DNA from: Bacteroidales bacterium
GTDB lineage: Bacteria; Bacteroidota; Bacteroidia; Bacteroidales; UBA12077
Assembly (NCBI GenBank): GCA_030637515.1
Contig: DAOWGM010000002.1
Location: 1-64,000, forward strand
Length of the DNA stretch: 64,000 nt
Reading direction: 5' to 3'
In this document: positions 1,041-20,116 of the stretch, one piece after another
Layout of the letters: each line of letters begins with the position of its first letter
Numbering within the stretch: position 1 is the first letter of the stretch
Translations under genes and position numbers: made by a program
Notes under the pieces: model-generated
The model's database searches: none
Told to the model about the DNA's origin: nothing
Seen by the model: only the letters and a program-made list of their open reading frames with translations

Positions 1041-1649
1041 ATGACTATGAAGAAGATAACTTTAGTTTTTTTGGTGCTATTCTGTGCAATTAACTATGTT
1101 GATGCTCAGGTAATATATCCTGAAGAAACAGATACTACAACTAACCAAGTAGAAAAGGAAAATAACACTTCCGATAAAGAGGAACAAACTGATATTATTT
1201 ATCAGCACGATGGAACAGAGATGAAGGTAAACGTAAAGAAGATTTATCTGAACGATCTTTATTATTCATTACCAGGTGAGACTAAGGTTAATAAAATGGA
1301 TCAACGACTGGTACATAAAATAAAATATAAAACAGGTAAAATTGAAATATTAAATGAGACAGCCCCTGCAGTAAGAGAAGTTGGAGATTACAGAAAAGTG
1401 AAAGTAACCTATAATGAAGAAGAAGTTGAAGGATTAATTGAAGTTGCAAAATTGGAAGCCAAAGCTGAGGGAAGTGATAGAAGATATTCTACTCCAAAAG
1501 CATTAGAAAGAACAGCTGTTATTGTTCTTAGAAGAAAAGCTGCTTTAGTTAACGGAGAAATTGTTTTAATAACTGGTAAAAAAACAAATGTAGCCTTTGG
1601 TGAAATTCCTTCTGTTACATTATATGGTACTGCTTATTCTTATCGATAA
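1041..1649 (+). CDS. Secreted protein of unknown family, paralogue of the gene at 24525-25088
   Basis: The 202-residue product starts with a signal peptide (MKKITLVFLVLFCA..., cleavage probably after VDA). A low-complexity acidic spacer follows (about residues 28-50), then a compact C-terminal domain. I do not recognise a named family. The domain matches the product at 24525-25088 along its length: KIKYKTGKIEI against KIIFSNGRKEV, DVEGL/EVEGL, then an alpha-helical A-xx-LRRKAA-x-x-x-GEIVLITGKK block and a final GTAYSY/GIAYGF. Two in-frame starts exist (1041 and 1047). The second gives the more usual MKK start. It is transcribed alone between two terminators. A structural role in the periplasm or outer membrane is possible but not shown. 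Confidence 0.75.
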   Translation: MTMKKITLVFLVLFCAINYVDAQVIYPEETDTTTNQVEKENNTSDKEEQTDIIYQHDGTEMKVNVKKIYLNDLYYSLPGETKVNKMDQRLVHKIKYKTGKIEILNETAPAVREVGDYRKVKVTYNEEEVEGLIEVAKLEAKAEGSDRRYSTPKALERTAVIVLRRKAALVNGEIVLITGKKTNVAFGEIPSVTLYGTAYSYR

Positions 1650-1666
1650 ATAAAATAAAGAATATG

Positions 1667-1697
1667 AAAAAGGCGATCAATTTGATCGCCTTTTTTT
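1667..1697. terminator. Bidirectional intrinsic terminator
   Basis: GGCGATC (1672-1678) pairs with GATCGCC (1684-1690), with an A run before and a T run after. It serves both the gene ending at 1649 and the convergent acyltransferase gene, whose stop codon (1696-1698) lies inside the T run. Confidence 0.85.
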
Positions 1698-3045
1698 ATT
1701 TTGTGATTGTATCCATCTTAGTGCAGATATAATTATAATTGTCTTTCAAGTCTTGCAAATCTTTATTTTTAAACCATGTTTTAAAAGTAAACCTCATGCG
1801 AGAACAAAGCTTTTTAACCTCAATATAATAGATAAATGCAAATAGGCCTGCAAATGGCAATAAAGCCAATGCTGATAGTTTTAACCACCATGGTTCAGCT
1901 ATAAATGATCCTGCAATTATTAGAATAATGTAGTACAAAGGGAATAGAATTATTGCAATTACATTTCTTACCGAACTTACAAATTGTGGATCTTTAACGT
2001 TTTTAGTTAACCAAACAGGAATTTTATATGGTAAATAATTTATTATACCTCCAATTAAATATATTGGTAGAAATAATAACGCAAATAAAGTTTTTAATAA
2101 TGTACCAAAAACTGAGAAAGGTGCTTTTTGCATTACCCAGTGTCTGAAATTGAGTTTCTTTAATAATTCAGAATATTTTGATGTTTTATCGGCTAATTCT
2201 TTTGTTTCTTCAGGATTGCTTTCAACAAACTCATTTAAATTCTTAATTATATTTTTTTGAGCATAAAATTGATGAGGTTGCTTATTTTCTACTCCCATTT
2301 TCTCAGTCATTTGAGGAAGAAATAAATACCTGATGGAATCAAACATATCATAATATTCTTCATTCTCAATATGAATCATATATTTTTTAAGCTCAGAGGC
2401 AACACGCTCCCTAAGAAGATTCATTCCTCGAGCAGGATGTTTTTTATACTCTTCATAATATTCCGAAACACTTATTGGTTCACCGAAGTTAATAAAAAGC
2501 CTACTTCTGAAATTCGAATAATGACTCCAATCCAAACCTACAGGAACAATCTTAATATCAAGTTTAAAATCATTTGATTCTTCTGCTTCAAAAACAATTC
2601 GTGAAACACCTTTTTTTAGAGTTCTTAACCTTCTAATTCCGGCGTGATTTCCTTCTGGAAGAATTACTAAACCATTTTTATTTTTAAGTACATCAATAGT
2701 TTTTCGAAAAATTGCCTCGTTATTTCCTAAGCTGTCTTTTCCATCTCGAATACGATAAATTGGTAAAATCCGTAGAAATGTAAGAATTTTTGCAATAGCT
2801 GGTTTTTTAAATATATCAGCACGAGCAAGGAATACAGGTTCAGAATCAACTTTTGTAAGAAGAGCCAAAGCATCCATTAAAGCATTCTGATGATTAGGAG
2901 TATATATTATGATTTCATCTTTTGGAATGTTCTTTTTATTATGAATTTTTGTTCTAAAATATGTTGTTGTTACAAAATCAACATAGGGTTTTAAAAATGA
3001 ATAGAAGAAGGAGGATTTCTCAATGTCTTCTCTGTTTACTGCCAT
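1696..3045 (-). CDS. Membrane lysophospholipid/glycerophosphate acyltransferase (PlsC superfamily)
   Basis: The 449-residue protein has a PlsC-type acyltransferase domain in its first half. The catalytic block is NHQNALMD near residues 51-58, an HX5D spacing like that of the glycerol-3-phosphate acyltransferase subgroup rather than the HX4D of classical PlsC. The ILPEGNHAG block further on corresponds to the FPEG substrate-binding motif. The second half holds a helical region and about four hydrophobic segments (around residues 310-340 and 360-405), which anchor it in the inner membrane. Expected role: acylation of a lysophospholipid or glycerol phosphate during membrane lipid synthesis. The acyl acceptor cannot be told from sequence. 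Only 5 bases separate it from the upstream symporter gene, so the two form an operon. Confidence 0.82.
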   Translation of the reverse strand: MAVNREDIEKSSFFYSFLKPYVDFVTTTYFRTKIHNKKNIPKDEIIIYTPNHQNALMDALALLTKVDSEPVFLARADIFKKPAIAKILTFLRILPIYRIRDGKDSLGNNEAIFRKTIDVLKNKNGLVILPEGNHAGIRRLRTLKKGVSRIVFEAEESNDFKLDIKIVPVGLDWSHYSNFRSRLFINFGEPISVSEYYEEYKKHPARGMNLLRERVASELKKYMIHIENEEYYDMFDSIRYLFLPQMTEKMGVENKQPHQFYAQKNIIKNLNEFVESNPEETKELADKTSKYSELLKKLNFRHWVMQKAPFSVFGTLLKTLFALLFLPIYLIGGIINYLPYKIPVWLTKNVKDPQFVSSVRNVIAIILFPLYYIILIIAGSFIAEPWWLKLSALALLPFAGLFAFIYYIEVKKLCSRMRFTFKTWFKNKDLQDLKDNYNYICTKMDTITK

Positions 3046-3050
3046 AAATA

Positions 3051-3998
3051 TTAATTGTTTTTAGATTCTTTTAAAGGTTTTCTGGACCAAAATGCTGCTA
3101 TTCCTAATCCAGATATTATATGCCATATTCCCCAAAGAGCAGCAATAAAAGCCATTCCTCCGAGTCCGTTAAATAATTTTGGATTAAAAATTAAAACAAG
3201 CGCAAGTCCTGAGTTTTGGATACCAGTTTCAATAGTAATGGTTCGAATGTTGTTTTGACTTAGTTTAAAAATTTTTGCAAATGAAAAGCCTGTTGTTAAT
3301 GCAAGTGCATTATGAATTAGTACGATAAGAAAAATTAGATGGACATATTTTACAAAATGGCCCCAATTCAATGATAGTGCGGCAAGAACATAACTAGCAA
3401 ATATTACTATTGAAGCAATTTTAATTGGCTTAACAATTTTTGATGTAATCTTTGGAAATTTATATGAAAATAACATTCCAAATGTTAAAGGAATCCCAAG
3501 TAATATAATCATTGTTTTAAACATTTCGAAAGGATCTATTTCAATTGGGATTAATAAATCTGAGCCTTTAGAATAAAATGCAGCATATATACTTCCCCAA
3601 AATGCAAAATTTAAAGGTGTCATAATTAATGCTGACAAATCGGCAACTGCAGTTAAGCTTACAGAAAGTTCAGTGTTCCCTTTTGCCAATGATGTCATGA
3701 AATTGGAAATATTTCCACCAGGACAAGCAGCAACTAGAATCATCCCAAATGCAATACTTGGCGAAGGATTGATTACTAAAACTAATATTAAAGTTAGAAG
3801 AGGTAAAAGAATAAATTGTGCTGACACTCCAATAATTGCTGATTTTGGTTCTGCAAATACTCGCTTAAAGCGTTCTTTTTTAAGTTCTAAGGCAACACCA
3901 AACATAACAAATGCTAATGTTAGATTTAAGAGAAGTAAGCTTCCTTCATTAAAGTTTAAACGAATATTATCCAGATGTTCCAATGAATCTGCAAACAT
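3051..3998 (-). CDS. Bile acid:sodium symporter family (BASS) transporter
   Basis: This 315-residue integral membrane protein has about nine hydrophobic segments and the hallmarks of the bile acid/sodium symporter family. These are VAACPGGNISNFMTSLAKGN at about residues 89-108 (first unwound helix crossover, sodium and substrate site) and ETGIQNSGLALVLIFNP at about residues 257-273 (second crossover). It would move an organic anion inward with sodium. The substrate cannot be named: bacterial members carry bile acids, pantoate, pyruvate or other acids. It is the first gene of a two-gene operon with the acyltransferase downstream. The 259-base gap before the next gene (3999-4257) is AT-rich, and I see no RNA or repeat in it. 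Confidence 0.88.
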   Translation of the reverse strand: MFADSLEHLDNIRLNFNEGSLLLLNLTLAFVMFGVALELKKERFKRVFAEPKSAIIGVSAQFILLPLLTLILVLVINPSPSIAFGMILVAACPGGNISNFMTSLAKGNTELSVSLTAVADLSALIMTPLNFAFWGSIYAAFYSKGSDLLIPIEIDPFEMFKTMIILLGIPLTFGMLFSYKFPKITSKIVKPIKIASIVIFASYVLAALSLNWGHFVKYVHLIFLIVLIHNALALTTGFSFAKIFKLSQNNIRTITIETGIQNSGLALVLIFNPKLFNGLGGMAFIAALWGIWHIISGLGIAAFWSRKPLKESKNN

Positions 3999-12310: not shown

Positions 12311-14389
12311 TTACAACCTTATTCTTAGCTGAACTTTAACTTCTGATTTAGTATTGCCATTAATTTGAGTTAATCCTGAAGAAATTTCATCTGTGTCTGA
12401 AAAGTAGGTTTGAGAATAACGTAACCAGATATCCATATTTTTTCCTACAGAATATTTTAGATTGAAATAAGTTCTGGTTCCTTTTGAATAATATGCCGGA
12501 ATAGAAAATGCATATAAAATATCACTTTCGTAAGCATAAATACGTGCATAGTACGAATCTGTTTCGAAGATAGCAAAGCGCATATTTAATGATAAAGGAA
12601 TCTTTTTAAAATCATAAAAAACATCCTGATAAATCATATAACCATAATCGGTACTTTCTGATTCTTCTTTAAATGCAGCAGTCTCAACTCTATTTTTTAA
12701 TGAAAGTTGATCATTTATTCGATAAGAAATATGATAACGTAATTTGAGAAGATTCTGGTAGCTTAATTCATCAACTCCTGATTCAGTTAATTTATTCCCT
12801 AATTTTTCTTCATTTTTTATTCTTACATACATACTTAAATTTCGGGTAGGAGTATAATCTGTTTGTACAAACCACTCATAACCTGTTGAAGGAGCATCAA
12901 CGCCTGTTTTTATCCAAGGGAACTCATAAGTGTCGAAATATGCTGTTACCATCCAGTGTTTTATCGGATGTAACTCAAGTCCAAAGTAAAGACCAGACTC
13001 ATTGCTGGTTCCTGAAGCTTCGGCAAATCCATTTGCATAGTTTGCCTGATAATTCTTATCATAATGCCTGTGCATTGCAGAGAAAGAAACTTGTGGTGCC
13101 AAATTCACAAGAAAACCATTCAAAAAAGCTTTCCCTCCATTTGCACTTATTGCTTCTTCTCCAAAGAAACTAAAATCACCTAATCCAAATTGATAATCCA
13201 TACCAATATTGGAGTTTTCATTTCCTTGAAATTTAAATTGATTTTCAGGTGTAGTATCTTTTAATAAATCAGTACTGTATTTGTAATTTACACCGGTTAT
13301 TCCAATCTTGAATTTAGAATGGTTAAATGAAATATTTCCTCCTATAATTTGTTCACCAATAGCATCTTTATCGATTATTTCTGAAGGAACAGAATGGTAA
13401 CCCGAATTCTGAAACGAAGATACACTTGCAATTTCGTTATCAATGCTATCTTGAATATTAGCATCAATTTTCTTGTTTGAATAGAAAACTGTAAAATCAA
13501 TATTTTTAACAGAAATGGTTGTTCCTGCACCACGCATAAACACATTTTCGTTAGTTGATGAGTATTTTCTTAATCCTTGTGCTTTTTTCCTAATGTTTAG
13601 AACATAGGGTGTTTTTGAAAAACCCATATCAGACCATAAAACCAAACCTTGCCCGAACTTAGCTTCGAAATCTCCAAGTGTAAGTGTTTTAACAAAACCA
13701 AAATTATTTAACTGTAAATGAGCAGAATAATAATCAAAGCCATTTTTATTATTTCCACTAAAAAACTCTTCCCCAGGATCTTTTTCAGCTGTAATTCCCC
13801 AGTAAATCTTGTTTTTGTAATTGTATTTATATTTGGTGTAAATTTTATAGGAGCTTCCAAGGTATCGTGAGTTTGGACTTTTTAAAAGGTCCGAATCGGA
13901 AATTGAACTGTATCCAACTTGTTCTTCCAACACTTCCTGCCCACGTAAAAATAACTGATGATTGCCATATTTTAGTGCATTTTTCACCTTAAAATGATCA
14001 TCTGCTTTTATTCCAGAAACACTTACAAAAGGTAAAATCTTGTTAACATCGGCAACAGTAAATCCATAAACTAACTGAAGTTCATATATAGATAACATCT
14101 GACCATTTCTTTTAACATAATCGAGCAAGCTTTTTATCTGAAAATCATTTAATATCTGAAGCTTTTCAAAATCTTCCAGTGTAGCTGTATTTATATTAAG
14201 CGGATTATTTAAAAAGTAATTTAAATCTTCGTATAAACTGGTGTAATCTAATTCTGAGTCTGTGCTACCAGCAATTTCTTCAATTAAATCTTCCAGCGAA
14301 GGATCTTTTTGAGCCATAGTATTTAAACTCAAAAAGAGCATAAATAGGATGAGTACACTATTTCTTATGCGGAAGATTCTAAAACCCAT
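12311..14389 (-). CDS. Outer-membrane beta-barrel protein with N-terminal helix-hairpin-helix motifs
   Basis: The 692-residue protein has a signal peptide (cleavage after NTMAQ). An acidic helical stretch follows, then two helix-hairpin-helix (HhH) segments: LNINTATLEDFEKLQILNDF (about residues 58-77) and SIYELQLVYGFTVADVNKIL (about 95-114). The remaining 570 residues are alternating beta strands rich in aromatic residues, ending in a terminal strand VKVQLRIRL, as expected of an outer-membrane barrel. HhH motifs of the ComEA type usually bind DNA. Here they would sit in the periplasm. The function is unknown to me. It overlaps the upstream barrel gene by 11 bases, so the two are co-expressed. 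Confidence 0.75.
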   Translation of the reverse strand: MGFRIFRIRNSVLILFMLFLSLNTMAQKDPSLEDLIEEIAGSTDSELDYTSLYEDLNYFLNNPLNINTATLEDFEKLQILNDFQIKSLLDYVKRNGQMLSIYELQLVYGFTVADVNKILPFVSVSGIKADDHFKVKNALKYGNHQLFLRGQEVLEEQVGYSSISDSDLLKSPNSRYLGSSYKIYTKYKYNYKNKIYWGITAEKDPGEEFFSGNNKNGFDYYSAHLQLNNFGFVKTLTLGDFEAKFGQGLVLWSDMGFSKTPYVLNIRKKAQGLRKYSSTNENVFMRGAGTTISVKNIDFTVFYSNKKIDANIQDSIDNEIASVSSFQNSGYHSVPSEIIDKDAIGEQIIGGNISFNHSKFKIGITGVNYKYSTDLLKDTTPENQFKFQGNENSNIGMDYQFGLGDFSFFGEEAISANGGKAFLNGFLVNLAPQVSFSAMHRHYDKNYQANYANGFAEASGTSNESGLYFGLELHPIKHWMVTAYFDTYEFPWIKTGVDAPSTGYEWFVQTDYTPTRNLSMYVRIKNEEKLGNKLTESGVDELSYQNLLKLRYHISYRINDQLSLKNRVETAAFKEESESTDYGYMIYQDVFYDFKKIPLSLNMRFAIFETDSYYARIYAYESDILYAFSIPAYYSKGTRTYFNLKYSVGKNMDIWLRYSQTYFSDTDEISSGLTQINGNTKSEVKVQLRIRL

Positions 14390-15200
14390 AACTTAAAGTA
14401 AATGATGGCGTAAATCCTAAAGTCTGATGTTTAACAAAACCAACATGCGCATTTATTTTCTGATAATGAAAACCCGCTCCGAATGAATATTTTGCCGGAT
14501 TGGTCGAAATTCCTGCCTGAAGTGAAACATATTCAATTAATTTATAATCGAATCCGGCTTTAAATCTGGCTTCTTGGTTTATATCTTTTTCAGTTCCCAC
14601 AGCAAATAAAACTTTCTCAGAAAATAAATAACTTACTCCAAGATTAAAAATGGTTGGTATTTCTTCTTCGCCCATTTTACTTCGCGACGGATTGTAAACA
14701 TGGGCACCAATAAATAAATTATCAATGGGTTGAGAAAGAATTCCAACTTCAAAATTAACAGCATTAGCCGAACCATAATTACCGGCAATCTGGGTATGTA
14801 AATAATTTAATTGCAAACCGACAGAAAAGTATTTTGAGAAACTTCTTCCGAATGACAGCCCGGCTTGCATTTCATTGTATTGCGAATATCCGTAGTAAGA
14901 ATAAGATGCACCAATAGTTCCTGTTTTTGTTGGTAAAGCAAAAGCCATGCCTTGTAAGTTTTGTTCTTTTATATATCCCGACTGATGAAAAATTCCCACT
15001 GAAATGTTCTCTAAGTAACCCAAGCCAGCCTGATTGTGATATACAGACCAGATATCGGCAAGGGTAACCGAGGTATTAGCCATTGCAGCAGATCTGCCTT
15101 CTTCAATTCCTTGATTCTGAATTGAAAATGCCTGACTGAAACTTAAAAAGCAGATTGAAAATATGAATAATAAGCTTTTATATAAGGATCTAATTCTCAT
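14379..15200 (-). CDS. Outer-membrane beta-barrel protein, PorV/PorQ-like fold
   Basis: About 273 residues with a signal peptide (MRIRSLYKSLLFIFSICFLSFSQAFS). The start of the mature protein, GIEEGRSAAMANTSVTLADIWSVYHNQAGLGYL, resembles the N-terminus of PorV/PorQ/FadL-type barrels, in which a mostly helical segment meets the barrel mouth. The rest is amphipathic strands ending in FTLSYGF. I chose the ATG at 15200, since the upstream in-frame ATG (15227) would put a polar stretch before the signal peptide. It is the first gene of an operon with the HhH-barrel protein, overlapping it by 11 bases. A transport role is possible but the substrate is unknown. Confidence 0.75.
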   Translation of the reverse strand: MRIRSLYKSLLFIFSICFLSFSQAFSIQNQGIEEGRSAAMANTSVTLADIWSVYHNQAGLGYLENISVGIFHQSGYIKEQNLQGMAFALPTKTGTIGASYSYYGYSQYNEMQAGLSFGRSFSKYFSVGLQLNYLHTQIAGNYGSANAVNFEVGILSQPIDNLFIGAHVYNPSRSKMGEEEIPTIFNLGVSYLFSEKVLFAVGTEKDINQEARFKAGFDYKLIEYVSLQAGISTNPAKYSFGAGFHYQKINAHVGFVKHQTLGFTPSFTLSYGF

Positions 15201-15333
15201 GCTAAATCGGTTTAAAAAACAGGTCATGAAGATACAATAAATTCATAAGTATAAAATGAATCTAAAATGAATTAGCAAAATGATCTAATTATATATAGGA
15301 TTTAGAAAAAAAGACTAACCTGAATTTTGGGTA

Positions 15334-15364
15334 TAAAAAAAGGAGAAATAATCTCCCTTTTTTT
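15334..15364. terminator. Terminator of the detached purE end
   Basis: GGAGA (15342-15346) pairs with TCTCC (15352-15356), flanked by A and T runs on both sides. On the minus strand it directly follows the stop codon of the purE remnant at 15363, as a native purE terminator would. The rest of 15201-15558 outside this and the remnant shows no gene. Confidence 0.75.
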
Positions 15365-15412
15365 AATTCACTTTATACTGATATTTAATTTTCGCCAAAT
15401 CTTCGTTTGCTT
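15363..15412 (-). pseudogene. Detached copy of the purE 3' end (last 15 codons and stop)
   Basis: Read on the minus strand, these bases encode ANEDLAKIKYQYKVN and a stop. Intact purE at 18301 ends ANEELAKIKFQYKTN and a stop. Over 50 bases there are 8 mismatches. Four of the seven changed codons are synonymous, and the other three give similar or tolerated residues. The copies therefore diverged as functional coding sequence before one was detached. Similarity stops upstream of the alanine codon, where this copy has an in-frame TAA. Thirteen bases (15400-15412 and 18338-18350) are identical at the inner edge. Both copies have the same orientation and flank a 2.9-kb segment. Confidence 0.8.
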
Positions 15413-15558
15413 ACACTCCTTACATAAATATGTTTTATAACACAGTTTTTACAGGGTCACCTTTTATGTATTTCGGGAATTAATATATGGAGGCATAGTT
15501 CTTTTTGAAATTTTGTTTAAATTTATTTGATAATTATTAAACCTAAAAATTAAAATTT

Positions 15559-16050
15559 ATGAGAAACTTAAGTAAAATTCTATTCCTGTGCGGAATAATT
15601 GTTTTTACGGCTTTTAGCTGTGAAGAAGAAAACAATTCAGATGAGAATATTATTCCATTGAGTGAAGTCACTATTAATGAAAGTTATTTGCAATTATCAC
15701 TGGTGGAAACTAAGTGGAAACTAATAGGTTTTGGAAATTATACTTCTAACACCCTAAAAAAGGCTGAACCCGAAGGAGATAGTTGTTATATTTTACACTT
15801 TCATCTTGACAATAAAATAACGGGTTGGACTTCAACCAATAAAATTGGAGGCTCTTACCAACTGAATATTTCATCTCAAGAACTGATATTTAGCTATTTT
15901 GGGGGTGCTGAAATTAACGAACTTTTTGATGGCAACGATTATGTTGATGCAATACACCAAGTACACTCGTACGAAATTACGAACAAGGGTTTAGCTCTCT
16001 ATTATGACAATCAAACACTTTTTTTACTCTTTAAGCCCTTAGAACAATGA
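15559..16050 (+). CDS. META/HslJ-like lipoprotein
   Basis: The 163-residue product has a lipoprotein signal ending in the lipobox FTAFSC, followed by an acidic stretch (EEENNSDEN) typical of surface-exposed Bacteroidota lipoproteins. The core runs from VETKWKLIGF through the strands CYILHFHLDNKITG and GGSYQLNISSQELIFSY to a C-terminal strand LFLLFKPL. This pattern resembles the META (HslJ/DUF306) domain. The match is by pattern and is moderate. Its stop overlaps the start of the downstream protease gene (ATGA at 16047-16050), so the two are translationally coupled. It is the first gene of the islet bounded by the purE repeat. Confidence 0.65.
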   Translation: MRNLSKILFLCGIIVFTAFSCEEENNSDENIIPLSEVTINESYLQLSLVETKWKLIGFGNYTSNTLKKAEPEGDSCYILHFHLDNKITGWTSTNKIGGSYQLNISSQELIFSYFGGAEINELFDGNDYVDAIHQVHSYEITNKGLALYYDNQTLFLLFKPLEQ

Positions 16051-18249
16051 AAAATATACTTTTTGTTTTAGCGTTGAATCTTATATTTCTTGTAAGCAAT
16101 GCACAAATAAGCACTCATGAGTTACCTGTAAGTTTTAAGTATGATATTGATAAATTGAGCGAAACCTCGGTAAGTTCTAAAAAACTACCTTATTTGGACT
16201 TTCAGAAGTTAGATAAGGAAGATCTACAGGATGAAAAAAATGGAATACCTCCTCGTTTCGGGTATCGGCAAAAGGTAGATTATTCCATTAATAATTCAGG
16301 AACATGGCACACCTTACCCAACGGTGATAAGATTTGGTGTTTAAATATCGCTTGTCCTGGTGCTCTTTCAATAAATTTACTGTATAGTAAATTTTGGTTA
16401 CCCGAAAGGGGAAAGCTTTTTATTTACAGTAATGACAAAAAGCATGCAATAGGAGCTTTTACTTCGATTAATAATAAAGGAAGTAAAGAAAACATACTTG
16501 GATTTGCCACAGGTTTGGTTTATAGTGATAAAATTACAGTAGAATATTATCAACCCAAAAATATTGAAGAGCAAGCTATTATTTCTATTGATTATGTTGT
16601 ACACGGATACAGATATATAAATCTGCCTGAGAATAGAAGTTTGGGCAATTCAGGCGATTGCCAGGTAAATGTAAACTGCCCCGAAGGTAATGGTTGGAAT
16701 AATGAAAAAAAAGCAATAGCACTTATTTTGGTAAATGGTAATAGGTATTGTACAGGTTCGTTGGTAAATACTACAGCCAATGATTTACGTCCATTATTTC
16801 TTACTGCTGATCATTGTTTAGGTGGATGGGGAAATGATTATATCAAGTATGATGCTGTAACGAATCCGAATTTAAATCATTATTCTTTCTATTGGCATTA
16901 CGAACATCATGCTTGTTCAAATAGTAGTACAGAACCTCCAATATACTCAACTGTTGGAGCAACAGTAGTAGCCAATAATTCTACATCGGATTTTGCCTTA
17001 TTAAGATTAACTGAAAATCCTTTGTATAACCCAAATATTACCCCTTACTATCTGGGGTGGGACAGATCTAGTAATTCGGGAACAGGAGGTATAGGTATTC
17101 ATCATCCGGCGGGAGATGTAAAAAAATGCTACTTATACGATTACTCCGGAAACATCTAATTGTTTTTACTCAGGTAATTCCAACTTTTGGAAAGTAAATT
17201 GGATTTCAACATTAAATGGCCATTCTGTAACAGAAGGAGGTTCTTCCGGCTCTCCACTAATTAACAATAATCATAAATTGATTGGACAGCTTTATGGCTC
17301 TGGTCCCTTATGCCTTAACCCTAATTGTTCAAATCCCTCTGAAGATATTGGAAATTACGGAAAATTCAGCAGCTCATGGACAGGTAACGGAGCAAGTGAT
17401 AATCGTCGCCGGTTAGATCATTGGTTAGACCCTGTTGGAACAAATCCTACAACACTTAATGGCAGGAGAATTTCATACATCTCCGGTCCATCCGTCAGCT
17501 GCTTTCCAAATAATACTACATTCACCCTTAATAACCGCCCTTCGGGTACAACTGTAAACTGGACAAAAAGCAGCAATTTGTCTTATGTTAGCGGGCATGG
17601 AACAAATAGTTATGTAGTTGAGGCGCTAAATCCAACTTCTGGCAGTTCTGGTTGGGTAAAAGTAGAAATCTCAGATGCACAAGGAAATTCTATAACTCTT
17701 GAGAAAGATTTATGGGTAGGAGAATTAGGTGAGCTTACTATTATTTCACCAAGTGTTGCATATGGTGAAAGCGATTTTTCTGTCTTTGCAAACCCAGAAT
17801 CTCCATTTATTAATTATAATTGGAGTGTAAGTGGTGCAGATATTGTTTCTGGACAAGGAACTGATGAATTAAGACTAAGTTCAGAATGTGGGAATATGGT
17901 TGTTGTTAGTTGTACTGCTTCAGTTTGTGGTTCTTCTGATAATGCTTTCAAAAAAATACGTATGGAATGTGATAATCCAGCCATTATTCCTGGCCTTCTA
18001 AGTGTTATTCCTAATCCGGCAGATGATTATATTGAAGTGTTTATAGAAAATTTGGCTGAAGAGGAATATTTAAATACGGAAAAGTTACATATAAAACTTA
18101 TAAATAACAGATCAACACCTGTTTATAATGGAACTACTCAACAAAAGAAATTCCAAATAAATACAAGTAATTTTCCAGAAGGTTTATATTATTTAGTTGT
18201 ACAGTATAAAGATCAAAAATATACAAGTACAATATTAATTTCACATTAA
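16047..18249 (+). pseudogene. T9SS-sorted trypsin/lysyl-endopeptidase-like serine protease, split by a frameshift
   Basis: Two reading frames together form one secreted protease of about 730 residues. The first frame (16047-17159) has a signal peptide, a prodomain, and the protease start CPEGNGWNNEKKA, with H256 in LTADHC and D315 in SDFALLRL. It runs out at IHHPAGDVKK. Dropping one base in the A7 run at 17121-17127 restores the second frame: NATYTITPETSN, then the catalytic serine (codon 17245-17247) in GGSSGSPL. PKD/Ig-like strands follow, and a C-terminal T9SS type-A sorting domain (SVIPNPADDYIEV to the end at 18249). As written the gene makes no active enzyme. The cause may be a real mutation, slippage at the A run, or a sequence error. 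ATGA coupling to the lipoprotein suggests joint expression. Confidence 0.85.
17121..17127 (+). other. Frameshift site: run of seven A in the protease gene
   Basis: The aspartate histidine-side half and the serine half of the protease join in frame only if one A is removed here. A ribosomal +1 step or a six-A transcript would have the same effect. Confidence 0.75.
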
Positions 18250-18259
18250 AACCTAAAAA

Positions 18260-18288
18260 AACATCCGAAGAATTTATCTTCGGATGTT
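18260..18288. terminator. Bidirectional intrinsic terminator between protease and purE
   Basis: AACATCCGAAGA (18260-18271) pairs perfectly with TCTTCGGATGTT (18277-18288) around an ATTTA loop, with A and T runs outside. It can end both the protease transcript and the convergent purE transcript. Confidence 0.9.
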
Positions 18289-18300
18289 TTTACTTTTACT

Positions 18301-18807
18301 TTAATTCGTTTTATATTGAAACTTAATTTTTGCTAATTCTTCGTTTGCTTTAACGATTTTAGATTTTAGATTTTCTTTGTAATCAATTAAAACTTGTTTC
18401 AAGGTTTCATCACCTGCAGCCATCATTTGTGTAGCTAAAATTCCTGCATTCTGTGCTCCATTAATTCCAACTGTTGCAACCGGAATTCCAGGAGGCATTT
18501 GAACAATAGCTAATAATGAGTCCATTCCATCTAAACTTGCATTTATGGGTACTCCAATAACAGGCAAGCTTGTCATTGCAGCAATTACTCCGGGTAAATG
18601 TGCTGCCATTCCTGCTCCTGCAATGATAACTTCTATTCCACGATCTTTTGCCGATTTTGCAAATTTCTCAACTTCTTCGGGTGTACGATGAGCCGATAAA
18701 GCATTTATTTCAAAAGGAATTTTAAATTCATCCAGTATTTTTGCTGCTTTTTCCATTACTGGCAGGTCCGATGTGCTGCCCATGATGATACTAACTTTTG
18801 CTTTCAT
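18301..18807 (-). CDS. purE: N5-carboxyaminoimidazole ribonucleotide mutase
   Basis: It catalyses the carboxylation step of purine synthesis, converting N5-CAIR to CAIR. The 168-residue protein carries IIMGSTSDLPVM (residues 8-19), the active-site LSAHRTPEEV, and the GAGMAAHLPGVIAAMT and PVIGVPI blocks, as in class I PurE. The last 15 codons have a diverged second copy at 15363-15412. The present 3' end may therefore have been brought in by whatever introduced the 2.9-kb islet downstream. It is transcribed alone from a well-formed promoter. Confidence 0.96.
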   Translation of the reverse strand: MKAKVSIIMGSTSDLPVMEKAAKILDEFKIPFEINALSAHRTPEEVEKFAKSAKDRGIEVIIAGAGMAAHLPGVIAAMTSLPVIGVPINASLDGMDSLLAIVQMPPGIPVATVGINGAQNAGILATQMMAAGDETLKQVLIDYKENLKSKIVKANEELAKIKFQYKTN

Positions 18808-18906
18808 TTTGTGTGTTAAGTTTTTTAAGTAATAAAATCATATTTAGAGCATTAATTCGTATTTTCGCCAAATATTAAATTTTATTGGTTTAAATAAGAT
18901 TTTGTG

Positions 18907-18939
18907 CAAAGGTAATATTATAATTTCAGATTGCCCAAA
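18907..18939 (-). promoter_or_regulatory. purE promoter
   Basis: On the minus strand there is a TTTG (18936-18939) at -33 and TACCTTTG (18907-18914) at -7, 21 bases apart. The leader to the purE start is about 100 bases. Confidence 0.6.
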
Positions 18940-18981
18940 CCTATAAAATTCAGTTAGTCCGGAAATAATAAAATCAATATA

Positions 18982-19521
18982 ATGAAACAGGTAAAATTAA
19001 AAGACAAGGAATTTGGAGTATCTATACCTTCAGAAAAAATACAAGAAGCTATTACTAAAATGGCTGAGAAAATTAATAAGGATTATGCAGGACATGATGT
19101 TCCCTTATTTATTAGTATTTTAAACGGATCTTTTATGTTTACAGCCGATTTATTTAAACAAATTGATTTTACCTGCGAAGTTACTTTCCTTAAATTAACA
19201 TCTTACAAAGGAACGGCCTCAACGGGAGCAGTACGTCAACTAATAGGAGTAAATGAATCGATTGAAGGTAGAGATGTTATTGTTCTTGAAGATATTGTTG
19301 ACACAGGAATAACGCTTGAGCAAATCTTAGGTCAGTTAAAAAGTTTTGAACCTGCAAGTGTGAAAGTTGCTTCATTATTATTTAAACCGGAGGCTTACCA
19401 AAAAGATCTAAATATAGATTATATCGGAATGGAAATTCCAAATGATTTTATTGTTGGTTATGGCTTGGATTATGATGGTTTAGGTCGAAATTTGGCAGAT
19501 ATTTATACTCTTATAAGTTAG
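18982..19521 (+). CDS. hpt: Hypoxanthine phosphoribosyltransferase
   Basis: This purine-salvage enzyme joins hypoxanthine or guanine to PRPP. The 179-residue protein has FISILNGSFMFTADL near the N-terminus (the flexible-loop and PRPP region) and the PRPP-binding signature VIVLEDIVDTGITLEQ at about residues 95-110. The C-terminal FIVGYGLDYDGLGRNL block is typical of HPRT. It heads the hpt-adk-obg run on the plus strand and lies opposite purE, so salvage and synthesis genes share one 174-base divergent intergenic region. Confidence 0.95.
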   Translation: MKQVKLKDKEFGVSIPSEKIQEAITKMAEKINKDYAGHDVPLFISILNGSFMFTADLFKQIDFTCEVTFLKLTSYKGTASTGAVRQLIGVNESIEGRDVIVLEDIVDTGITLEQILGQLKSFEPASVKVASLLFKPEAYQKDLNIDYIGMEIPNDFIVGYGLDYDGLGRNLADIYTLIS

Positions 19522-19540
19522 CTTTAAAACCTTAGATTTA

Positions 19541-20116
19541 ATGTTGAATATTGTTTTATTCGGACCTCCGGGCGCAGGGAAAGGTACGCAATCGCAAAAA
19601 ATAATTGAAAAATTCAAGCTTGTTCATATTTCCACTGGAGATGTTTTAAGAACAGCAATTCAGAAACAAACACCTTTAGGGATTGAAGCTCAAAAGCTTA
19701 TTGATGATGGTAATTACGTTACCGATGAAATGGCTTTTGAAATTATTAATAGTGAGCTGGAAGTGAATAAAAATTCAGGAGGTTTTATTTTTGATGGATT
19801 TCCACGAACAACTTTACAAGCCGAAAAATTTCCTGAATTTCTATCAGAATACGGCGGAGATGTTAATGTAATGATTTCGCTTGAGGTTGAAGAAAATAAA
19901 TTAATTGATCGACTTATAAAACGTTCAGAACAATCTGGAAGACCAGATGATAGGGAAGAAGAAATTATAAGAAAACGAATTGGTATTTATAATCAGAGAA
20001 CTGCTTGTGTAAAAGATTATTATAAATCTTTGGGAAAATATGAAGCTGTTGATGGAAATGGAGAAATTGATGTTATCTTTGATAAAATTTGTACCATAAT
20101 AGAAAAATACAAATAA
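19541..20116 (+). CDS. adk: Adenylate kinase
   Basis: It equilibrates AMP, ADP and ATP. The P-loop GPPGAGKGTQ is at residues 8-17. AMP-site blocks HISTGDVLR and FDGFPRTTLQAEKF follow, and the LID segment is short, with no zinc cysteines. RPDDREEEIIRKRIGIYNQRT carries the conserved arginines. At 191 residues it is the short-LID form usual in Bacteroidota. Its stop codon touches the obg start (TAA immediately followed by ATG at 20117), a tight operon junction. Confidence 0.97.
   Translation: MLNIVLFGPPGAGKGTQSQKIIEKFKLVHISTGDVLRTAIQKQTPLGIEAQKLIDDGNYVTDEMAFEIINSELEVNKNSGGFIFDGFPRTTLQAEKFPEFLSEYGGDVNVMISLEVEENKLIDRLIKRSEQSGRPDDREEEIIRKRIGIYNQRTACVKDYYKSLGKYEAVDGNGEIDVIFDKICTIIEKYK

What the first reader, a model, noticed from the sequence alone, without database searches (positions are those of the whole stretch)
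15363..18350. A 2.9-kb islet inserted at the 3' end of purE, bounded by a detached purE end
Bases 15363-15412 are a second, same-strand copy of the last 15 purE codons and stop, followed by its own terminator. It differs from the live copy at 8 of 50 positions, largely synonymous, so the two came from different purE lineages rather than from recent local duplication. The inner edge has 13 identical bases. This is the layout left by elements that integrate into the end of a gene, rebuild it and push the old end to the far side. The cargo is a lipoprotein and a T9SS protease. No integrase is present, so either it was lost or the segment came by homologous recombination.
Basis: partly seen in the sequence, partly recalled or inferred. 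Interest (0 to 1): 0.7.

Follow-up and report, generated by a model that had tools for sequence, protein, structure and literature searches.

The report
Swappable protease cassette beside purE
In an uncultured Bacteroidales bacterium, a small insert next to the purine gene purE left a scrap of an older purE end behind, and its cargo belongs to a small family of gene pairs in which a lipoprotein and a secreted protease differ from copy to copy while their outer ends stay alike.

Summary
The detached purE end is real: window 15363-15412 matches the live end at 42 of 50 bases, and a second copy appeared in 1 of 101 loci surveyed. Its outer flank is the one still joined to purE in empty-site relatives, so it is the old end. 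The purE-omp gap exceeds 1 kb in 4 of 14 measurable genomes; eight neighbouring gaps do so in 0 of 101. The sister genome carries other cargo. But no integrase is seen, displaced ends do not recur, the 13-base match is in 4 of 17 live tails, and the tail is too short to show a foreign lineage. I favour homologous recombination at purE with an illegitimate far join.
The cargo is the stronger result. Six loci in the genus share a C-terminal PKD_6/T9SS part. Five have upstream a lipoprotein gene with conserved leader and signal peptide (in one a 50-aa stub), and proteases of trypsin-like, papain or subtilisin type. This resembles Tannerella KLIKK protease-potempin pairs. Inhibition is inferred. 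The window's protease gene is frameshifted.

The parts
14379..15227 (-). PorV/PorQ-family outer-membrane protein gene (omp), the conserved gene on the far side of the insertion site
   Evidence: NCBIfam PorV_fam E 8.7e-16, 58 bits, below that model's cut-off of 90; next to purE in relatives
15320..15362 (.). ancestral flank and terminator-like hairpin that in empty-site relatives lies directly beside purE
   Evidence: same kind of flank in G016, G012; sister G008 82.5% over 160 nt, window 15228-15377
15363..15412 (-). detached old purE 3' end: 15 codons plus stop and two further bases
   Evidence: 42 of 50 identical to live end; 1 of 101 loci
15413..15427 (.). junction between old purE end and cargo; homology to another cargo module (G014 C96) starts at about 15428
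   Evidence: blastn 75.9% over 58 nt, window 15428-15485
15454..15485 (+). GGGTCACC leader motif, 5' edge of the cargo operon
   Evidence: 27 sites in 14 of the 20 genomes of the genus with at most 2 mismatches, 0 reversed controls
15559..16050 (+). lipoprotein with the conserved leader and signal peptide and its own body (weak META match)
   Evidence: signal peptide pattern at 7 sites in 4 of 20 genomes; META E 3.4e-4, 21 bits, cut-off 24
16047..17159 (+). protease, N-terminal frame: signal peptide and trypsin-like region with His and Asp motifs by eye
   Evidence: 36.8% over 361 aa to the Trypsin_2 protease of G014; own Trypsin_2 match weak, E 0.06
17120..17126 (+). run of seven A where the protease frame breaks
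   Evidence: two open frames, the second open for 375 codons
17278..18249 (+). protease, C-terminal frame from its first listed start; the GGSSGSPL serine motif lies just upstream in this frame (17236-17259), then PKD_6 and T9SS sorting domain
   Evidence: PKD_6 E 4.4e-10, Por_Secre_tail E 3.8e-8; shared chassis
18261..18292 (.). terminator-like hairpin between protease and live purE
   Evidence: sequence; similar hairpin in G014 and G009
18301..18807 (-). live purE

Best explanation
The islet is accessory DNA in a hot spot that lacks a visible mobile element, between purE and a PorV-like gene. Probably in an ancestor shared with its sister genome G008, incoming DNA that already carried a purE end joined to cargo (as in G014 today) recombined homologously on the purE side and joined illegitimately inside the resident purE end on the other side. 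The resident's last 15 codons, terminator and flank were left behind as 15363-15412. The cargo is a modular operon: a leader with a genus-wide motif, a lipoprotein and a protease secreted by the type IX system. By analogy with Tannerella potempins the lipoprotein probably restrains its own protease in the cell envelope, and in the genus lipoprotein bodies and catalytic domains have been exchanged between a conserved leader and a conserved PKD_6/T9SS end. Shown: old end, empty sites, hot spot, differing cargo, modular architecture. Inferred: the recombination route, its direction, exchange as a unit, and the inhibitory role.
For: Old flank and empty sites. Midpoint-rooted tree ((W,G008),G014) with the empty G016 and G012 as next group. 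G008 keeps the flank up to 15377, about five codons into the old end, then has other cargo, a 772-aa MG2-domain protein. Genomes with such cargo directly at the live purE end: G014, whole gap seen, and G009, contig ends inside the protease. Hot-spot control 4 of 14 against 0 of 101. Weak sign of mosaicism inside purE (W-G008 third positions, scan p 0.015, weighted 0.021). Cargo: leader DNA 75-94% and C-terminal DNA up to 86% alike with unrelated catalytic families; lipoprotein bodies clearly related only for the two G014 pairs, whose proteases are also related (28.7% and 47.7%). C-terminal DNA G009-G012 86% against 76.5% for core genes, leader W-G012 91% against 78%.
Against: No donor with closely matching cargo found: the nearest relative of the C-terminal piece is 37% identical, in 393 genomes of the order of which the listed rows hold 5 of the genus, with at most 5 candidates scored per genome; the N-terminal piece reaches 36-41% in the genus. 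The tail cannot tell donor from recipient. The G008 remnant rests on one local alignment; a MAFFT alignment of the same stretch pairs it differently. G014 has no old end, so it was lost there or the events are separate. The mosaic signal is weak, its window length was chosen after seeing the data, and shared-site counts favour the species tree. The likeness of cargo ends is not always above core: leader W-G014 84% against 81%, and the window's own last 144 bases match other copies poorly. No test of inhibition; AlphaFold models of two lipoproteins were useless (mean pLDDT 44 and 38) and no potempin was found by sequence. Selection alone could keep leaders and C-termini alike.
Confidence: 0.5

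Rival explanations
1. A site-specific element integrated at the purE end using the shared 13 bases, brought its own replacement purE end and later lost its integrase, or was moved by one acting in trans.
For: Two purE ends in the same orientation bound the cargo closely, and the restored gene end is intact.
Against: No integrase seen in the inserts examined; 1 of 101 loci has a displaced end; the 13-mer is present in 4 of 17 live tails anyway; G014 and G013 carry inserts without a recognisable displaced end.
Confidence: 0.18
2. The insertion itself duplicated about 50 bases of the resident purE end (long target duplication or repair synthesis), and the outer copy has drifted since, with no foreign purE involved.
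For: Placement of the detached tail beside the window's own purE is not rejected (AU p 0.158), and 5 of the 6 best placements are in or at the base of the W, G008, G014 group; the event predates the W-G008 split if the G008 remnant is real.
Against: Half of the differences are synonymous and two of three residue changes (D, Y) are alleles seen in living purE genes, which suits a copy that diverged under selection; best placement is on the G014 branch.
Confidence: 0.27
3. The cargo is an ordinary secreted protease next to an unrelated lipoprotein; the shared leader is only a common promoter and the shared C-terminus only a common T9SS domain.
For: The GGGTCACC motif also precedes many unrelated genes; PKD_6 and T9SS sorting domains are widespread; one locus (G014 C12) has two such lipoproteins and no protease; in G014 C96 the conserved-signal frame is only a 50-aa stub.
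Against: The DNA likeness covers the lipoprotein signal peptide too (7 sites, 4 of 20 genomes), and 5 of the 6 loci with the C-terminal chassis have such a lipoprotein frame upstream; the sixth, G009, is cut by the contig end.
Confidence: 0.3

Closest known systems
Tannerella forsythia KLIKK proteases with potempin lipoproteins (PMC4404884, passages and section 15 read; PMC7296668, passages read)
   Same: T9SS proteases of several catalytic classes on a partly conserved C-terminal extension, each preceded by a small lipoprotein gene; lipoprotein bodies differ in sequence
   Different: No KLIKK ending (ends in ISH, LIEH or LIEK); a PKD_6-like region in the extension; trypsin-like, papain and subtilisin types here; lipoproteins here share leader and signal peptide DNA, whereas the 2015 paper found no significant similarity among its six; inhibition untested; loci dispersed rather than in two clusters
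Hot spots lacking mobile elements that turn over by recombination at flanking core genes (Oliveira et al. 2017, PMC5635113, abstract and passages read)
   Same: Differing cargo between the same conserved neighbours and no integrase or transposase seen
   Different: Here seen between species of one genus, with a leftover gene end marking a junction; raised recombination in the flanking gene only weakly indicated
Islands and prophages that integrate into the 3' end of a gene and restore it (recalled)
   Same: Old gene end displaced to the far side, new end restores the gene
   Different: No integrase, no recurrence of displaced ends at purE, no diagnostic core

Membership tests
KLIKK protease-potempin pairs | secreted protease with T9SS C-terminal domain | tested here: met
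   Por_Secre_tail in the window and in the G014 (two), G012 and G002 proteases
KLIKK protease-potempin pairs | small lipoprotein gene directly upstream | tested here: met
   window and 4 other loci; 5 of 6 loci with the chassis, the sixth cut by a contig end; in G014 C96 the directly preceding lipoprotein has another signal peptide
KLIKK protease-potempin pairs | different catalytic classes on a shared C-terminal extension | tested here: met
   Trypsin_2, Peptidase_C1, Peptidase_S8 on one chassis
KLIKK protease-potempin pairs | C-terminal KLIKK motif | tested here: not met
   ends ISH, LIEH, LIEK
KLIKK protease-potempin pairs | lipoprotein related to a potempin of known structure | tested here: not met
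   window lipoprotein: no match better than E 0.54 among PDB sequences and none named potempin; sequence only, and whether potempins are in that library was not checked
KLIKK protease-potempin pairs | lipoprotein inhibits its neighbouring protease | not testable with these tools
   needs biochemistry
3'-end integrating genomic island | integrase or recombinase gene | tested here: not met
   main ORFs of the window, G008, G014 and G013 inserts show none; HMM scans of all of these but the G013 gene
3'-end integrating genomic island | displaced old gene end on the far side | tested here: met
3'-end integrating genomic island | recurrent displaced ends at the same site in relatives | tested here: not met
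   1 of 101 loci; possible remnant in G008 only
Hot spot without mobile elements | differing cargo between the same conserved neighbours | tested here: met
Hot spot without mobile elements | raised homologous recombination in the flanking core gene | tested here: inconclusive
   W-G008 scan p 0.015, weighted 0.021; site patterns 41, 22, 16 favour the species tree

The most novel reading that the evidence does not exclude
These Bacteroidales carry an exchangeable protease arsenal: conserved DNA at both ends (leader plus lipoprotein signal peptide, and PKD_6/T9SS end) lets homologous recombination swap the middle as one unit, so that a new catalytic domain arrives with its matching envelope inhibitor, with the purE end as a favoured docking place (3 of 6 chassis loci, of which the window and G014 may be one inherited insertion). 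It would be a KLIKK-potempin-like system outside Tannerella with a built-in exchange design.
Probability: 0.35. Interest if true: 0.7.

Novelty: new variant of a known kind. Interest (0 to 1): 0.5.

Why it matters
Protease-inhibitor pairs on the T9SS are known to me (recalled) mainly from an oral pathogen. Finding the same gene logic in an uncultured genus, with catalytic classes changed on a constant chassis and with the partner lipoprotein changing too, suggests a way to find candidate inhibitors of secreted proteases by sequence alone. The purE site shows that a hot spot within a genus can exist without a visible integrase and can carry a gene-end scar that helps to order events.

Tried and rejected
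Attachment-site reading of the GGGTCACC edge: rejected, because the motif precedes many unrelated genes across the genus and looks like a regulatory leader. Rfam over 14000-20000: 0 matches at gathering thresholds. Structure of the window and G014 lipoproteins by single-sequence AlphaFold: mean pLDDT 44 and 38, not used for any fold search. Sequence search of the PDB with the window lipoprotein: nothing credible. BsuPI-type inhibitor domain in the G014 lipoprotein, which I suspected by eye: no Pfam match at E up to 1, scanned without its first residue. Tail phylogeny: underpowered, 45 bases, 20 of 31 placements not rejected. Search for a cargo donor in 393 genomes of the order, at most 5 candidates scored per genome: nothing closer than G014. 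The chassis profile in 395 genomes of the class, at most 6 candidates scored per genome, gave 12 at E up to 1e-12, all but the window at 3.8e-22 or weaker; of the 12 loci looked at, one (L254) has a lipoprotein-like gene before an M10 protease with PKD_6 and T9SS domain. Paper searches for potempin, KLIKK, purE islands, T9SS inhibitor pairs and hot spots: the purE search was uninformative because the word pure matches; I make no claim that this is absent from print.
Full report
Observation. The window carries purE at 18301-18807 on the minus strand and, 2.9 kb downstream, a second copy of its last 15 codons and stop at 15363-15412. The two agree at 42 of 50 bases. The best other match to the live 46-base tail in the whole window is 29 of 46 against 38 of 46 here. 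Of the eight differences four are synonymous and four change three residues, so largely synonymous is not right.

Which copy is old. In relatives G016 and G012 the PorV-like gene and purE are 146 and 148 bp apart, and purE is followed directly by a terminator and a GAATTTTGGGTATAAAAA flank. In the window that flank and a terminator sit beside 15363-15412, not beside live purE. G011, G013 and G017 keep a small reading frame there whose end (EFWV or EFWA) is that same flank. So the far copy is the ancestral purE end.

Hot spot. Across the window and 16 same-genus genomes I measured nine gaps between neighbouring conserved genes. Only the omp-purE gap exceeds 1 kb: 4 of the 14 genomes in which it can be measured, against 0 of 101 measurements for the other eight gaps. 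Contents differ: lipoprotein and trypsin-like protease (window, G014), a 772-aa MG2-domain protein on the other strand (G008), and a 357-aa gene that looks like an aminopeptidase by eye (G013). The three genomes not measurable: in G007 the two genes lie about 35 kb apart in opposite orientation, in G015 no omp was found, and in G009 the contig ends within a protease end beside purE. No integrase appeared among the main ORFs of the inserts.

Age and route. A midpoint-rooted tree of five neighbouring genes (G008 with 864 of about 3,170 sites) gives ((window, G008), G014), with G016 and G012 as the next group at support 87. G008 aligns to the window flank at 82.5% over 160 nt ending at 15377, about five codons into the old end, and shares CACTTTATA where none of the 17 live tails has CAC; a MAFFT alignment of the same stretch pairs the bases differently, so this remnant is probable, not certain. 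If real, the event is older than the window-G008 split. The detached tail fits best on the G014 branch, but 20 of 31 placements are not rejected by the AU test, among them beside the window's own purE (0.158), G011 (0.315), G012 (0.122) and several deep branches; 11 are rejected. Third-position differences between the window and G008 cluster in the middle of purE (scan p 0.015; 0.021 when weighted by site variability; window length chosen after seeing the data), a weak sign of recombination; counts of shared sites favour the species tree, 41 against 22 and 16. The 13 identical bases at the inner edge also occur in 4 of 17 live tails and need no attachment core. I therefore favour homologous recombination on the purE side plus an illegitimate join in the resident end, with duplication on insertion as the main rival.

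Cargo. The window's left cargo edge is a motif, GGGTCACC...GGAATTAATA, found at 27 sites in 14 of the 20 genomes of the genus with no reversed control hit, ahead of small peptide genes, a LytTR-like regulator and lipoproteins (by eye). DNA of window 15440-15640, including the lipoprotein signal peptide, recurs at eight strong places (E 1.4e-18 or better): window, G014 (four), G012 (two), G002 (one). A signal-peptide pattern gave 7 sites in 4 of 20 genomes, 0 controls. These form six loci. In five a secreted protease follows; in G014 C12 two lipoproteins stand without one. In G014 C96 the conserved-signal frame is only 50 aa and a second lipoprotein with another signal lies between it and the protease. 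Catalytic domains are Trypsin_2 (G014 twice; the window's own match is weak, E 0.06, but it is 36.8% identical to the G014 purE-side enzyme), Peptidase_C1 (G012) and Peptidase_S8 (G002). All have a T9SS sorting domain; PKD_6 passes Pfam's cut-off in the window, G012 and G002, is below it in G014 at purE and is not reported in G014 C96. Their C-terminal parts align along their length, 32-42% identical to the window's, and share DNA, for example G012 with G002 at 85.7% over 293 nt while their catalytic halves show no relation. A profile of this chassis finds six loci in 5 of 20 genomes, three of them beside purE (window, G014, G009). The signal peptides of the eight conserved lipoproteins agree at 12-23 of 24 residues. 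Bodies show no clear relation except G014 purE with the second lipoprotein of G014 C96 (28.7%, E 1.8e-12; the next best pair is at E 0.002, in pairwise blastp without composition correction); those two proteases are also related (47.7%). Likeness at the ends sometimes exceeds that of core genes: leader window-G012 91% over 91 nt against 78%, C-terminus G009-G012 86% over 140 nt against 76.5%; but leader window-G014 is 84% against 81%, and the window's last 144 bases match other copies poorly.

Comparison. KLIKK proteases of Tannerella forsythia are T9SS enzymes of several classes, with a partly conserved C-terminal extension, each preceded by a small lipoprotein gene (PMC4404884, passages and section 15). 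The lipoproteins, potempins, are described as inhibitors of their own protease, on data then unpublished, whose coverage correlates with that of the protease across genomes (PMC7296668, passages). The present loci follow the same plan but lack the KLIKK ending, and the lipoproteins share a leader and signal peptide. I file them as similar, not as members. For the locus itself, Oliveira et al. (PMC5635113, abstract and passages) describe hot spots that lack mobile elements and recombine at flanking core genes.

Identity of the organism.

State of the window copy. The protease frame breaks at seven A (17120-17126); the serine motif lies after the break. It may be a pseudogene, a slippery run, or an assembly error; nothing here decides it.

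Verdict. Observation sound; integrase reading not supported; hot spot supported; recombination favoured but not proven; the cargo family is the more interesting result.

Noticed in passing
window 15454-15485; L154-L180: A leader motif GGGTCACCTTTT...GGAATTAATA occurs at 27 sites in 14 of the 20 genomes of the genus, ahead of small GG-type peptide genes that look like grasp-with-spasm precursors (recalled), a LytTR-like regulator (L163) and lipoproteins: a possible genus-wide regulon.
   Followed up: partly
window 17120-17126: Protease reading frame broken at a run of seven A; the serine motif is after the break.
   Followed up: partly
L033 and L041, gap between omp and purE: Gaps of 541 and 503 bp with inverted repeats (GGTGTCCAA...TTGGACACC; GGTTGTCCAA...TTGGACAACC), possibly small non-coding repeats (by eye).
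   Followed up: no
L032, L199 (G007): purE and the PorV-like gene lie about 35 kb apart in opposite orientation, so an inversion-like break falls at the purE end.
   Followed up: partly
L235 (G002 C284) 850-2120: Frames that look like an IS3-type transposase pair beside the subtilisin-type module (by eye).
   Followed up: no
L254 (G669) 404-2292; L249 (G619) 1498-3056: In another family of the class a small lipoprotein-like gene precedes an M10 protease with PKD_6 and T9SS domain (L254); L249 has a lipoprotein-like gene before a T9SS protein in which Pfam recognised no catalytic domain.
   Followed up: partly
L236 (G014 C12) 2901-3877: Two tandem lipoproteins with the conserved signal peptide and different bodies, without a protease.
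   Followed up: no
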